51,217 nt of DNA from an uncultured bacterium (GTDB taxonomy: Bacteria > Elusimicrobiota > Elusimicrobia > Elusimicrobiales > Elusimicrobiaceae). A model generated the notes under the pieces. The model worked only from the letters and a program-made list of their open reading frames with translations, did no database searches and was not told where the DNA came from. A program made the translations under genes and the position numbers. This document shows positions 1-23,858 of this stretch, piece after piece (positions within the stretch are counted from its first letter, which is position 1; each line of letters opens with the position of its first letter). Location: positions 1-51,217 of the forward strand of contig CASFTM010000014.1 of assembly GCA_949297775.1 (NCBI GenBank), written 5' to 3'.

Positions 1-41
1 TTTTTGATAAATTTTGCGTATGAGCAAAATTTATCAAAAAA
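1..41. repeat. Palindrome with pilin start codon in its loop
   Basis: Positions 1-17 pair perfectly with 24-40, and base 41 would pair with a T just outside the window. The six-base loop 18-23 contains the ATG at 20-22. The stem is AT-rich and is not followed by a T-run in either direction, so it is not an ordinary terminator. It could be an operator at DNA level or a translation-controlling hairpin in the mRNA. No Shine-Dalgarno is visible. Confidence 0.9.
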
Positions 42-91
42 CCCACCCGGCGGGGAAAAACGCCGGATTTACGCTAATAGAGCTGTTAGTG
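1..91 (+). repeat. 91-bp direct repeat, copy 1 (pilin leader cassette)
   Basis: Positions 1-91 are identical, base for base, to 15630-15720. The identity runs across the poly-T end, the start codon and the first 24 codons of two prepilin genes, then stops abruptly. This copy touches the window edge, so the repeat may extend further upstream. No other prepilin gene in the window shares it at nucleotide level. Confidence 0.95.
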
Positions 92-538
92 GTCGTTTTG
101 ATTATCGGTATTTTAGCGGCGGTGGCTTTGCCGCAATATACCAAAGCGGTGGAAAAATCCCGCGTGACCGAAGCAATGATTATACTGAAAAAAATTGCGG
201 ATAATGTGGATATGTGTCTGCTGGAAAACGGCGGGCAGTTGGCCCTTTGCGGAGAGCCGGATATCTGTTTTGCTGGATTTGAAAACAAAGGTTACAATGC
301 GTCCGGCTTCACTACGGATCATTTTCAATATGGGTGGTGGGCTGTTCCGATGGCCATACGGAATACAGATGATTATGGTTTAATACAAGTCACTCCCCAG
401 GTGGCGGCTATCAATGGGCTGCCGGAGGGGCGTTGGTGTGCCCCAAATACGGAAAAAGGACAGGCTCTTTGTAAGAGCCTTGCCGGTGGGAAAGCCTCTA
501 TTACGAATGGCTTTATGGGCACAGCATTCCCATTTTAG
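20..538 (+). CDS. Orphan type IV prepilin / pseudopilin
   Basis: A 172-aa precursor of a type IV pilin-like subunit, inserted in the inner membrane, processed by prepilin peptidase and assembled into a filament. A 16-residue leader ends in Gly, followed by FTLIELLVVVLIIGILAAVALPQY; Glu5 of the mature chain is present, as is the ALPQYTKAVEKSR segment typical of Elusimicrobia pilins. The C-terminus carries WC-x10-C, a likely disulfide loop. ATG at 20 is preferred over TTG at 14. The leader is long compared with the MKK-G leaders of most other pilins here, and lies inside the palindrome and the 91-bp repeat. It converges on uvrA with only about ten bases between stops. Whether it is a major or minor subunit cannot be told. 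Confidence 0.9.
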   Translation: MSKIYQKTHPAGKNAGFTLIELLVVVLIIGILAAVALPQYTKAVEKSRVTEAMIILKKIADNVDMCLLENGGQLALCGEPDICFAGFENKGYNASGFTTDHFQYGWWAVPMAIRNTDDYGLIQVTPQVAAINGLPEGRWCAPNTEKGQALCKSLAGGKASITNGFMGTAFPF

Positions 539-15034: not shown

Positions 15035-15177
15035 GTTGACGCACGGTCTTGCCGGTGGAAATGGGGATTGCCCGGTTGAGAGTTGTTGTGCCGGGGCGTG
15101 GAAGGAGAAAATTTGTATAGCTCCGCTGGTCGGGTTGGCGGGTCTTGGCAGCCGCCCCTGGGGGGCATTTCTGTAGG

Positions 15178-15253
15178 GCGCGGCATTTCTAAAATAGTGT
15201 GGCCCCATTAGTCGTGTTAACGGGCATAGAGCGGGGAGCCCAGCTTTTGGGCC
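15178..15253 (+). repeat. Dispersed stem-loop repeat, copy A
   Basis: Begins GCGCGGCATTTCTAAAA, continues AGTGTGG...GTGTTAACGGGCATAGAG, and ends in a GCCCA/TGGGC hairpin with a GCTTT loop. Shares these blocks in order with the units at 22928-23270 and 31965-32040. Confidence 0.85.
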
Positions 15254-15278
15254 CTTTTTCTGGCACCAGAAAAAGGGC
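15251..15278. repeat. 28-bp near-perfect palindrome
   Basis: 13-bp perfect arms (15251-15263 with 15266-15278) around a two-base centre. It directly abuts the hairpin of repeat copy A. Confidence 0.9.
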
Positions 15279-15289
15279 GAAAAAGAGTG

Positions 15290-15418
15290 CCGGCCCAAGG
15301 CCCCATAAAAATCACTTTCAAGCGGGAAATTTTATAACTCGCGCGGGTTCCCCGCGCTCAGACAATAAAATTTCTTCTCCGCTTGGAAGGCTTTTTATAG
15401 ACGGGGCAAAAGGGCCGG
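15290..15418. repeat. 129-nt long imperfect hairpin element
   Basis: Outer arms CCGGCCC (15290-15296) and GGGCCGG (15412-15418) pair perfectly. Inside, GCCCC/GGGGC, ATAAAAA/TTTTTAT, TTCAAGCGG/CCGCTTGGAA and GAAATTTTAT/ATAAAATTTC pair in register with small bulges, capped by GCGCGGG/CCCGCGC. It could be a miniature inverted-repeat element or a structured RNA. No target-site duplication recognised. Confidence 0.7.
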
Positions 15419-15423
15419 ATAAA

Positions 15424-15471
15424 CGGCAACAGCAACAGCAACAGCATAAGCGTAAGCGGAAACGGAAACGG
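15424..15471 (+). repeat. Degenerate hexanucleotide tandem repeat
   Basis: Period-six tract: AGCAAC repeated, drifting through AGCATA, AGCGTA and AGCGGA to AACGGA and AACGGC. About eight units. No gene spans it convincingly. Confidence 0.8.
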
Positions 15472-15485
15472 CTTCCTTTTGAATA

Positions 15486-15553
15486 GTGCGGCATTTCTAA
15501 AACGTGTGGCCCAGCTAGTCGCGTTAACGGGCATAGCGTGCCTGCCCCGGCAA
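15486..15553 (+). repeat. Dispersed stem-loop repeat, copy B
   Basis: Starts GTGCGGCATTTCTAAAACGTGTGGC, contains GCGTTAACGGGCATAG, and ends in a short TGCC/GGCA hairpin. Tandem with copy C. Confidence 0.75.
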
Positions 15554-15558
15554 GGGGG

Positions 15559-15613
15559 GTGGCTTAAACTAATCGTGCTAACGGGCATAGAAAGGGGAGG
15601 CCAAGCTTTGGCC
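15559..15613 (+). repeat. Dispersed stem-loop repeat, copy C (5'-truncated)
   Basis: Lacks the GCGGCATT block and begins at GTGGCTTAAACTAATCGTG. Ends in a perfect GGCCAA-GCT-TTGGCC hairpin (15599-15613), followed after about nine bases by T12-GATA and then the pilin leader. The tract after the hairpin matches that after unit 4 of the 22928 array. Confidence 0.8.
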
Positions 15614-15622
15614 CTTGACGCG

Positions 15623-15634
15623 TTTTTTTTTTTT
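15623..15634 (+). repeat. T12 homopolymer tract upstream of pilin start
   Basis: Twelve T residues followed by GATA, 14 bases before the ATG at 15649. The same T12-GATA occurs at 23272-23287, and the window itself opens with T5-GATA in the equivalent position. Confidence 0.9.
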
Positions 15635-15670
15635 GATAAATTTTGCGTATGAGCAAAATTTATCAAAAAA
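15629..15670. repeat. Palindrome with pilin start codon in its loop, copy 2
   Basis: An 18-bp perfect stem (15629-15646 with 15653-15670) around a GTATGA loop that contains the ATG at 15649. Same sequence as 1-41. Confidence 0.95.
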
Positions 15671-15720
15671 CCCACCCGGCGGGGAAAAACGCCGGATTTA
15701 CGCTAATAGAGCTGTTAGTG
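15630..15720 (+). repeat. 91-bp direct repeat, copy 2 (pilin leader cassette)
   Basis: Identical to 1-91. Identity ends exactly at the Val codon where the hydrophobic helix of the other gene continues but that of this gene is missing. Confidence 0.95.
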
Positions 15721-16116
15721 ATGGCGGTTATGAAGTCCCGCTTGTCCACGATGCGCACGGTGCTTGAAAACCTGCACAGAGCCGAAGAAGTTTTTTATAT
15801 GGCTAACGGGTATTACGAAGCGAATACGGACAAATTGGATTTTGATTATAAAGGCTCCTGCACGGGAACGGATGTTTTAAAATGTGGCAATTTCTTTTAC
15901 GTGGACATCATAAACGGCAGCGGTGTAGTGACGGATCCGGGCAAATTGCATATCAAAGCTTCTTATTGCGTGGATACGGAAACCCTTTCCGAATGTTCGC
16001 CTGATTTTTCATACTATGTGTGGTTTGATAATTCTTCCAACCCTGGATTACGGACTTGCATAGGAAATAATGAGAAAGGCAGAAAATTCTGTAATATTAT
16101 AAACGCAGAAAATTAA
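15649..16116 (+). CDS. Chimeric prepilin lacking the hydrophobic helix
   Basis: A 155-aa protein with the same 16-residue leader and FTLIELLV start as the gene at 20-538, but the chain then jumps to MAVMKSRLSTMRTV. Against the usual pilin order, about 17 residues (VVLIIGILAAVALPQYT in the sister gene) are missing in frame, which removes most of the transmembrane/assembly helix. The rest of the gene is an intact pilin head with TC-x10-C near the C-terminus. It has its own terminator. As read, it could be processed but hardly anchored in the membrane or packed in a filament. It may be a decayed pilin, a silent donor cassette, a secreted head domain, or an assembly error across the repeat. Confidence 0.8.
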   Translation: MSKIYQKTHPAGKNAGFTLIELLVMAVMKSRLSTMRTVLENLHRAEEVFYMANGYYEANTDKLDFDYKGSCTGTDVLKCGNFFYVDIINGSGVVTDPGKLHIKASYCVDTETLSECSPDFSYYVWFDNSSNPGLRTCIGNNEKGRKFCNIINAEN

Positions 16117-16124
16117 AGTTTGCC

Positions 16125-16148
16125 GCCCCGGTTTTCCGGGGCTTTTTT
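16125..16148 (+). terminator. Terminator of the chimeric pilin
   Basis: 7-bp stem GCCCCGG/CCGGGGC, TTTT loop, T6 tail. Confidence 0.9.
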
Positions 16149-16339
16149 ATGTAACTACTTCCGCTTTTGCCGAAGCGGCTGCACCTTGCACTGGGTGGGC
16201 AGGCCTAGCTAAGGAGCGGCCTGCCCACCGGGCAGTGCGGCGGCCTCTTCTGCAACGGCTATCCCCAAAAGGCGCGGCGCAGTTTCCGGCTGCGCTGAGC
16301 CGCCGGGGGGCAGAGGGGGTTTTTACAGGCCCAATTTGG

Positions 16340-22927: not shown

Positions 22928-23275
22928 GGGCGACATTTCCAAAACAGTGTGGCTCAATTAATCGTGTTAACGGGTGAAGGGAAGGGAGCACCGGCTCGGT
23001 GCCGTTGCGCAAGGGCGCGGCATTATGGGAACAGTGTGGATCAATGAATCGTGTTAACGGGTGAAGGGAAGGGAGCACCGGCTCGGTGCTGTTGCGCAAG
23101 GACGCGGCATTCCTAAACTAGTGTGACCCAATTAATCGTGTTAACGGGTGAAGAGAAGGGATCACCGGCTCGGTGCCGTTGCGCAAGGGCGCGGCATTCC
23201 AAAACAGTGTGGCTCAATGAATCGTGTTAACGGGTGAAGGAAAGGGAGCCCAGGCTCTGGGCCTTGATTTGTTTT
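22928..23275 (+). repeat. Tandem array of four 87-bp stem-loop repeats
   Basis: Units start at 22928, 23015, 23102 and 23189, exactly 87 bp apart. Each has GCGCGGCATT-like, CAGTGTGG, AATCGTGTTAACGGGTGAAG and AAGGGAGC blocks, a hairpin, and (units 1-3) GTTGCGCAAGG. Hairpins: units 1 and 2 GCACCG-GCT-CGGTGC; unit 3 the same with its outer pair lost; unit 4 GCCCAG-GCT-CTGGGC. Unit 4 ends instead in CTTGATTTG and T12-GATA. Nothing else is visible in the gap between etfA and the pilin at 23370 apart from this array and a promoter. There are no unique spacers, so it is not a CRISPR array. Confidence 0.95.
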
Positions 23276-23283
23276 TTTTTTTT
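23272..23283 (+). repeat. T12 homopolymer tract
   Basis: Twelve T followed by GATA after the last repeat unit, 86 bp before the pilin start and about 19 bp before its candidate -35. Confidence 0.9.
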
Positions 23284-23301
23284 GATACACTGGTGCTGGC
23301 G

Positions 23302-23330
23302 TTGATTTTTGGGCTGTTAATTATTAGACT
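23302..23330 (+). promoter_or_regulatory. Candidate pilin promoter
   Basis: TTGATT at 23302-23307, 17-bp spacer, TAGACT at 23325-23330. Predicted leader of about 33 bases to the ATG at 23370. Confidence 0.4.
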
Positions 23331-23369
23331 GTAGTTAGGCTTTTAGATTAACTTGCTAAGGAGTTTTTT

Positions 23370-23858
23370 ATGAAAAAGGGTTTTACTTTGATAGAATTAT
23401 TGGTTGTCGTACTAATTATCGGTATTTTGTCGGCGGTGGCGCTGCCGCAGTATACCCGGGCGGTTAATAAATCCCGTATGGCAACGTTGGTGCCCCAGCT
23501 TAAATCATTGCTTGATGCTGGAGAAGTGTATGTGTTGGCAAATTCTCTTTCAGCTGGGCAAGGAGATATAGTCATTCCTTTGGACAGTTTGGATATTGAA
23601 TTGGATGATACTTCATTTGACTTTAAAGGGGGAAAAGAGTGCAGCTTTTCCTTACGGCTTCCGGCAAGTAGTGCGACGGTGGGGCTTGTGTCCATGTGCT
23701 CAGGAAGCGCCGGCATATTTGGGATAACAGGTACCGGCGTGCTGTTCTGTGCGCCATCAGACACTGTTTGCAAAGAATATGGTTTTACTAAAGTAAGCTC
23801 ATTAACTGCCGGCGGGGATTTTGCCAGTATAGTTACCGGTACGGTTTACACCATGTAA
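23370..23858 (+). CDS. Orphan type IV prepilin 5
   Basis: A 162-aa prepilin: leader MKKG, mature FTLIELLVVVLIIGILSAVALPQY with Glu5, then TRAVNKSRMATLVPQLKSLL. The head is Ser/Gly-rich with FKGGKECSFSLRLPASS and ends FC-x6-C-KEYGFTKV. AAGGAG lies ten bases before the ATG. It follows the 87-bp array and converges on another prepilin on the minus strand. Confidence 0.93.
   Translation: MKKGFTLIELLVVVLIIGILSAVALPQYTRAVNKSRMATLVPQLKSLLDAGEVYVLANSLSAGQGDIVIPLDSLDIELDDTSFDFKGGKECSFSLRLPASSATVGLVSMCSGSAGIFGITGTGVLFCAPSDTVCKEYGFTKVSSLTAGGDFASIVTGTVYTM

What the first reader, a model, noticed from the sequence alone, without database searches (positions are those of the whole stretch)
15599..15720. 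Repeat hairpin, T12-GATA and pilin gene form a recurring module
At 15599-15649 and 23248-23370 the order is the same: GCT-loop hairpin, CTTGAYNYG, exactly T12, GATA, then a prepilin gene. The window itself opens with T5-GATA before another prepilin, so a third case is probably cut by the edge. Homopolymer tracts of this length often slip during replication, and here one sits 14 bases before a start codon. Phase-variable pilin expression is a plausible inference.
Basis: partly seen in the sequence, partly recalled or inferred. Interest (0 to 1): 0.7.

Follow-up and report, generated by a model that had tools for sequence, protein, structure and literature searches.

The report
Poly-T promoter shared by pilin genes
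In a genus of gut bacteria (Elusimicrobiaceae), dozens of scattered pilin genes per genome are each preceded by a near-identical predicted promoter whose two contact boxes are separated by a run of almost always exactly 12 T's, which makes them look like one co-controlled pilin family rather than two switchable genes in one window.

Summary
CTTGAYNYG-T12-GATA occurs 40 times in this 1.69-Mb Elusimicrobiaceae genome. Counting variants, 60 sites were read, 53 of them exactly T12. It was found in 38 of 61 genomes of the genus and in none of 40 from the sister family. All 44 own sites with enough downstream sequence precede a prepilin gene.

The T-run is best read as a promoter spacer. TTGNNN (-35) is followed by a 16-bp spacer (NN-T12-GA) and TAnnnT (-10); the final T is 99-100% conserved. 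Many start codons sit exactly where transcription should begin, so those mRNAs are probably leaderless. All T9+ copies lie on the G-rich, presumably leading strand.

Phase variation is possible but not shown. Slippage is seen: twin promoters with T12 and T10, and 7-12% of loci off 12. Yet T12 stays pure and exact while the -35 and -10 boxes diverge between species, which points to stabilising selection. The hairpin is a frequent neighbour in this genome, not a universal part. The gene at 15649 lacks 51 bp of its membrane helix and is probably non-functional. Both slots hold different pilins, or none, in relatives.

The parts
15599..15613 (+). GC-rich hairpin GGCCAA-GCT-TTGGCC abutting the -35
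   Evidence: hairpin statistics (frequent, not universal)
15615..15620 (+). predicted -35 element TTGACG
   Evidence: column conservation
15623..15634 (+). T12 tract, centre of the 16-bp spacer (15621-15636)
15637..15642 (+). predicted -10 element TAAATT
   Evidence: TAnnnT with final T conserved 100% (own) and 99% (other species)
15649..16116 (+). prepilin-family gene with a 51-bp in-frame deletion of the N-terminal helix; ATG at +34 from the -35 (leaderless position)
   Evidence: no Pfam or NCBIfam hit
16125..16148 (+). the gene's own terminator-like hairpin and T-run
   Evidence: sequence
15035..16315 (.). segment absent from the orthologous intergenic slot (downstream of trigger factor) in six relatives
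22937..23257 (+). 3.7 copies of an 87-bp intergenic repeat carrying GCT-loop hairpins
23248..23262 (+). hairpin GCCCAG-GCT-CTGGGC abutting the -35
23264..23269 (+). predicted -35 element TTGATT
23272..23283 (+). T12 tract, spacer 23270-23285
23286..23291 (+). predicted -10 element TACACT
23370..23858 (+). prepilin gene with SD leader
   Evidence: PF07963 and TIGR02532
1..5 (+). last five T's of a third tract, cut by the contig end
8..13 (+). predicted -10 element TAAATT of the third copy
20..538 (+). prepilin gene of the third copy
   Evidence: PF07963
39971..44604 (+). type IV pilus machinery: pilQ-like secretin, pilB-like ATPase, pilC-like protein (supports that the pilins can be assembled)

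Best explanation
The recurring block is a predicted sigma-70-type promoter (TTGNNN, 16-bp spacer NN-T12-GA, TAnnnT) that drives a large family of dispersed, single-gene type IV prepilin loci in one genus of gut Elusimicrobiaceae. Each locus is a promoter, one prepilin gene and usually its own terminator, sitting in an intergenic slot on the presumed leading strand. In the commonest class the ATG lies at the expected start of transcription, giving a leaderless mRNA; other classes have a short SD leader. T12 fixes the -35/-10 spacing and gives a stiff A-tract spacer. Its length and purity are kept by stabilising selection, so the genes form one co-expressed pilin set. Occasional slippage changes the spacing and would weaken or tune single promoters. 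Sequence shows the motif, spacing, gene linkage, polarity and turnover. Promoter activity, leaderless start, co-expression and any effect of tract length are inferred.
For: Fixed geometry: TAnnnT lies at a constant distance from TTG, with the final T at 100% (own) and 99% (named relatives), although it was not part of the search pattern. G006 carries TTGACTTG-T12-GG-TATGAT, the same spacing with a different -10. The -35 varies (TTGACN, TTGATT, TTGCAT, TTGTAT) while T12 stays. In G002 the pilin in the same slot as the T11-promoter pilin of G023 has TTGATT-16-TAAAAT with a mixed spacer, the same geometry without the T-run. Gene linkage: 44 of 44 own and 115 of 127 other sites precede a prepilin. 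ATG at +34 is the commonest start in other species too, including unrelated 5' sequences. Polarity: every T9+ site follows the GC-skew strand in the own genome, and 18 of 18 in G046; background genes are 101:76. Constancy: 53 of 60 and 144 of 155 exactly T12, with no other T/A run of 9 or more in 243 kb. Prepilins number 22 to 93+ per genus genome (93 is the scoring cap) against 3-12 in the sister family.
Against: No transcript data. A pure homopolymer is more than a spacer needs, and spacing alone does not explain why interrupted tracts are almost absent. The palindrome TTTTTGATAAATTTTGG..CCAAAATTTATCAAAAA around the -10 and start codon in this species could be an operator or part of an RNA, though it is missing in other leaderless classes. 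Leading-strand placement is inferred from GC skew only. The named loci were found with an exact T12 pattern, so their length distribution is biased towards 12; the own-genome variable-tract search and the G046 stretches are less biased.
Confidence: 0.8

Rival explanations
1. Phase-variable promoters: slippage of the T-run in the spacer switches or tunes each pilin gene independently, so a population shows many pilin combinations. This can coexist with the best explanation.
For: Tract lies in the promoter spacer and is kept as a pure homopolymer while homopolymers of 9 or more are otherwise absent. Twin promoters T12/T10 with otherwise identical sequence. Off-12 loci T9-T13 mostly keep open prepilin frames. 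The same slot in relatives carries T11, T12 and a 17-T run.
Against: About 88-93% of loci, and nearly all listed in G060, are exactly T12. MutS is present. No population data.
Confidence: 0.33
2. T12 is a recognition or structural site for a dedicated regulator or nucleoid protein of the pilin regulon, independent of slippage.
For: T12 is more conserved than the -35. It is tied to prepilins.
Against: No candidate protein was looked for. Position between -35 and -10 is explained by a spacer.
Confidence: 0.3
3. Hairpin plus T-run is an intrinsic terminator of the upstream gene, or an insulator.
For: GC hairpins abut the motif at 35 of 59 own sites, against 1.9% of shuffles.
Against: An 8-9-nt gap separates the stem from the T-run. 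The hairpin is missing at most sites in other species. A terminator does not explain the conserved TAnnnT.
Confidence: 0.06
4. The module is the end of a mobile cassette that carries pilin genes into intergenic sites in one orientation.
For: Paralogue homology can start exactly at CTTGA and end near the gene's end. Slots are empty or hold other pilins in relatives. Strict polarity.
Against: No Y1 transposase in the genome. No clean empty site or target duplication; relatives have unrelated filler. Other recombinases were not searched. Duplication and gene conversion suffice.
Confidence: 0.12

Closest known systems
Promoters with phase-variable homopolymer tracts (Neisseria opc and porA, Bordetella fim; from general knowledge)
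   Same: A homopolymer between or near -35 and -10 of a surface-protein promoter
   Different: Those are single loci or a few loci with widely varying tracts. Here dozens of loci share one tract, almost always 12.
Helicobacter pylori sabA promoter T-tract (PMC11162790)
   Same: A mononucleotide T-tract near the promoter of an adhesin; its length changes DNA curvature and output
   Different: In sabA the tract alters UP-like element alignment, and its length differs between strains and clones (T13, T15, T17). Here it is the predicted -35/-10 spacer and near-constant.
[quoted passage not shown]
   Same: A one-base change in a promoter homopolymer sets expression
   Different: A short A5/A6 tract at a single gene.
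Type IV pilus system (PilB, PilC, PilQ, prepilins)
   Same: Machinery in the window and the N-methyl prepilin motif
   Different: About 90 mostly dispersed prepilin genes, most of them single genes with their own promoter and terminator.

Membership tests
sigma-70-type promoter | TTGnnn and TAnnnT boxes at 16-18 bp | tested here: met
   16-bp spacing, conserved boxes
sigma-70-type promoter | transcription starts about 7 nt after the -10 | not testable with these tools
   Consistent ATG at +34, no RNA data
phase-variable homopolymer promoter | homopolymer placed where its length changes promoter geometry | tested here: met
phase-variable homopolymer promoter | tract length differs between otherwise identical alleles | tested here: inconclusive
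   One twin pair T12/T10; 88-93% of loci exactly 12
phase-variable homopolymer promoter | length variation within a population and expression dependent on length | not testable with these tools
   No reads, strains or expression data
type IV prepilin | G-FTLIE cleavage motif and hydrophobic N-terminal helix (PF07963) | tested here: met
   90 hits in the genome at E <= 0.1; window 20-538 and 23370-23858
type IV prepilin | the same, for window 15649-16116 | tested here: not met
   Cleavage motif kept, 17 codons of the helix deleted; below the PF07963 cut-off
intrinsic terminator | T-run directly after a GC hairpin | tested here: not met
   8-9-nt gap; hairpin not universal
mobile cassette | precise empty site | tested here: not met
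   Filler of 59-156 bp differs in each relative
mobile cassette | cognate recombinase or transposase | tested here: inconclusive
   No Y1 transposase; other recombinases not searched

The most novel reading that the evidence does not exclude
A whole pilin repertoire of 50-100 dispersed genes per genome is controlled through one poly-T spacer that acts as a slippage-prone control element, so that each cell displays its own pilin combination while the population defaults to the T12 state.
Probability: 0.28. Interest if true: 0.82.

Novelty: new variant of a known kind. Interest (0 to 1): 0.62.

Why it matters
Homopolymers in promoters are known at single genes. Here one exact tract is kept at dozens of loci in many species, and the own genome otherwise shows no long T/A runs in the sequence read. 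It gives a clean natural system to ask whether a pure homopolymer spacer is kept for switching or for promoter structure. It also marks a hyper-expanded pilin repertoire in a little-studied gut lineage, in which the window's two pilin slots hold different pilins, or none, in related species.

Tried and rejected
A Y1 transposase as the driver of polarity was not found. The motif in viral contigs: none. The hairpin as an obligatory part: rejected. The palindrome around the start codon as a general operator: not conserved in other leaderless classes. Known RNA families in the window: only two tRNAs. The E. minutum genome paper is not held; paper searches found nothing on this motif. One region request, one protein request and one paper query were malformed and were repeated in corrected form.

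Full report
What is there. The first has a GCT-loop hairpin, CTTGACGCG, T12, GATA, and an ATG 14 bases after the T-run. The second has the same order, but its gene starts 82 bases after GATA behind a Shine-Dalgarno sequence. The window's first bases, T5-GATAAATTTTGCGTATG, repeat the sequence at 15630. The window is an entire contig or its start (G000:C14:1-51217), so the sequence left of position 1 is missing from the assembly; several other contigs of this genome also begin or end inside the same module.

How common it is. The exact motif occurs 40 times in the own genome and 0 times when the pattern is reversed. Allowing other tract lengths gave 46. Starting from prepilin genes instead of from the motif added more, mostly with GTTGATTTG behind a CCCCCGGCAAGGGGG hairpin. 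In total 60 own sites with a tract of 9 or more were read: T9 1, T10 1, T11 2, T12 53, T13 3. Of 101 genomes searched, 38 have the motif, all of this genus; none of 40 genomes of the sister family has it.

What it is. Aligned on TTG, the sites show TTGNNN, two bases, T12, GA, TAnnnT. The last T of TAnnnT was not in the search pattern, yet is present in 100% of own and 99% of named sites. Allowing three mismatches in three genomes, changes fall almost only in the -35 (TTGACN, TTGATT, TTGCAT, TTGTAT) and in the middle of the -10; the T-run is nearly always pure and 12 long. G006 has the same spacing with -10 TATGAT. In the slot at 23 kb, the pilin of G023 has TTGACT and an 11-T run. Its relative in the same slot of G002 has TTGATT, 16 mixed bases and TAAAAT. 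This is the geometry of a sigma-70-type promoter with the T-run as spacer.

The genes. All 44 own sites with at least 600 nt downstream precede a prepilin, and 115 of 127 sites in other genomes do. Most are single genes followed by their own terminator. In the commonest class ATG lies at +34 from the -35, where transcription should start. This also holds for unrelated 5' sequences in other species, so these mRNAs are probably leaderless. The genome has 90 prepilin matches at E <= 0.1; genus members have 22 to 93 or more (93 is the scoring cap), sister-family genomes 3 to 12. The window carries pilQ-, pilB- and pilC-like genes. The first two dozen residues after the cleavage site are nearly invariant, the rest is variable. 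The gene at 15649 lacks 51 bp in frame, most of the N-terminal helix, and falls below the PF07963 cut-off; it is probably a non-functional pilin, or an assembly error.

Location and turnover. Every own site with T9 or more lies on the strand with positive GC skew, and 18 of 18 in G046, where the orientation flips with the skew; background genes of 200 aa or more are 101 to 76. The first slot, downstream of trigger factor, is empty in six relatives but with different filler. The second slot holds no pilin in G011, a remnant in G034 and other pilins in G020, G013, G023, G028 and G002. G020 and G013 share the pilin body but have different promoter and N-terminal classes, which suggests exchange of 5' modules by recombination. 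Some paralogue pairs are similar exactly from CTTGA to the gene end, with unrelated upstream sequence.

Does the tract slip? Twin tandem copies in L096 are identical for 37 nt up and 638 nt down, but one has T12 and the other T10. Off-12 loci mostly keep open frames. But T12 dominates everywhere, other long T/A runs are absent from 243 kb of own sequence, and MutS is present. Because the -35 and -10 sequences differ between species while T12 does not, recent copying within a genome cannot explain the constancy. Stabilising selection on spacer length and composition is the best-supported reading. Why the tract must be a pure homopolymer is open: switching and DNA structure both remain possible. 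The named set was found by an exact T12 pattern, so its length distribution is biased; the own-genome and G046 counts (14 of 18 exactly 12) are the fairer ones.

The hairpin. Stems of 5 bp or more abut the -35 at 35 of 59 own sites (1.9% in shuffles), but only 33 of 143 sites elsewhere. They belong to intergenic repeats such as the 87-bp array at 22937-23257, and are neighbours rather than a defining part.

Known comparisons. Promoter homopolymers that tune surface proteins are established, for example the H. pylori sabA T-tract (PMC11162790) and the meningococcal nspA A-tract (PMC6389960). A single exact T12 shared by a whole pilin regulon was not found in the papers searched; most subscription papers are not held.

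Side finding. In G040, which lacks the motif, sampled prepilin genes carry a different shared control element, a covarying structured leader RNA described under noticed in passing. It may be a second regulator of pilins and other exported proteins in this genus.

Noticed in passing
L234, L237, L238, L239, L241, L242, L243, L244 (G040); L268 (G000:C3:66448-66603, minus strand): A leader RNA of about 155 nt with nested helices and a competing terminator-like hairpin lies upstream of prepilin and other exported-protein genes. Of 45 predicted pairs, 26 show changes on both sides in 8 sequences. Its model matches 55 of 61 genus genomes and none of 40 outside the genus; no Rfam family matches at gathering score. 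It looks like an undescribed attenuator or riboswitch.
   Followed up: partly
   Followed up: partly
window 22937-23257: Tandem 87-bp intergenic repeat with GCT-loop hairpins, related to repeats upstream of many pilin genes in this genome.
   Followed up: partly
L096 (CALUXC010000004.1): Tandem twin genes for a predicted secreted protein, not a prepilin, behind the same promoter with T12 and T10.
   Followed up: partly
L220 (G013:C134): TTGA followed by a 17-T run: the G before the tract has become T and the spacing has grown by one.
   Followed up: no
window 15630-15669: Long inverted repeat TTTTTGATAAATTTTG..CAAAATTTATCAAAAA spanning -10 and start codon in this species and near relatives.
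   Followed up: partly
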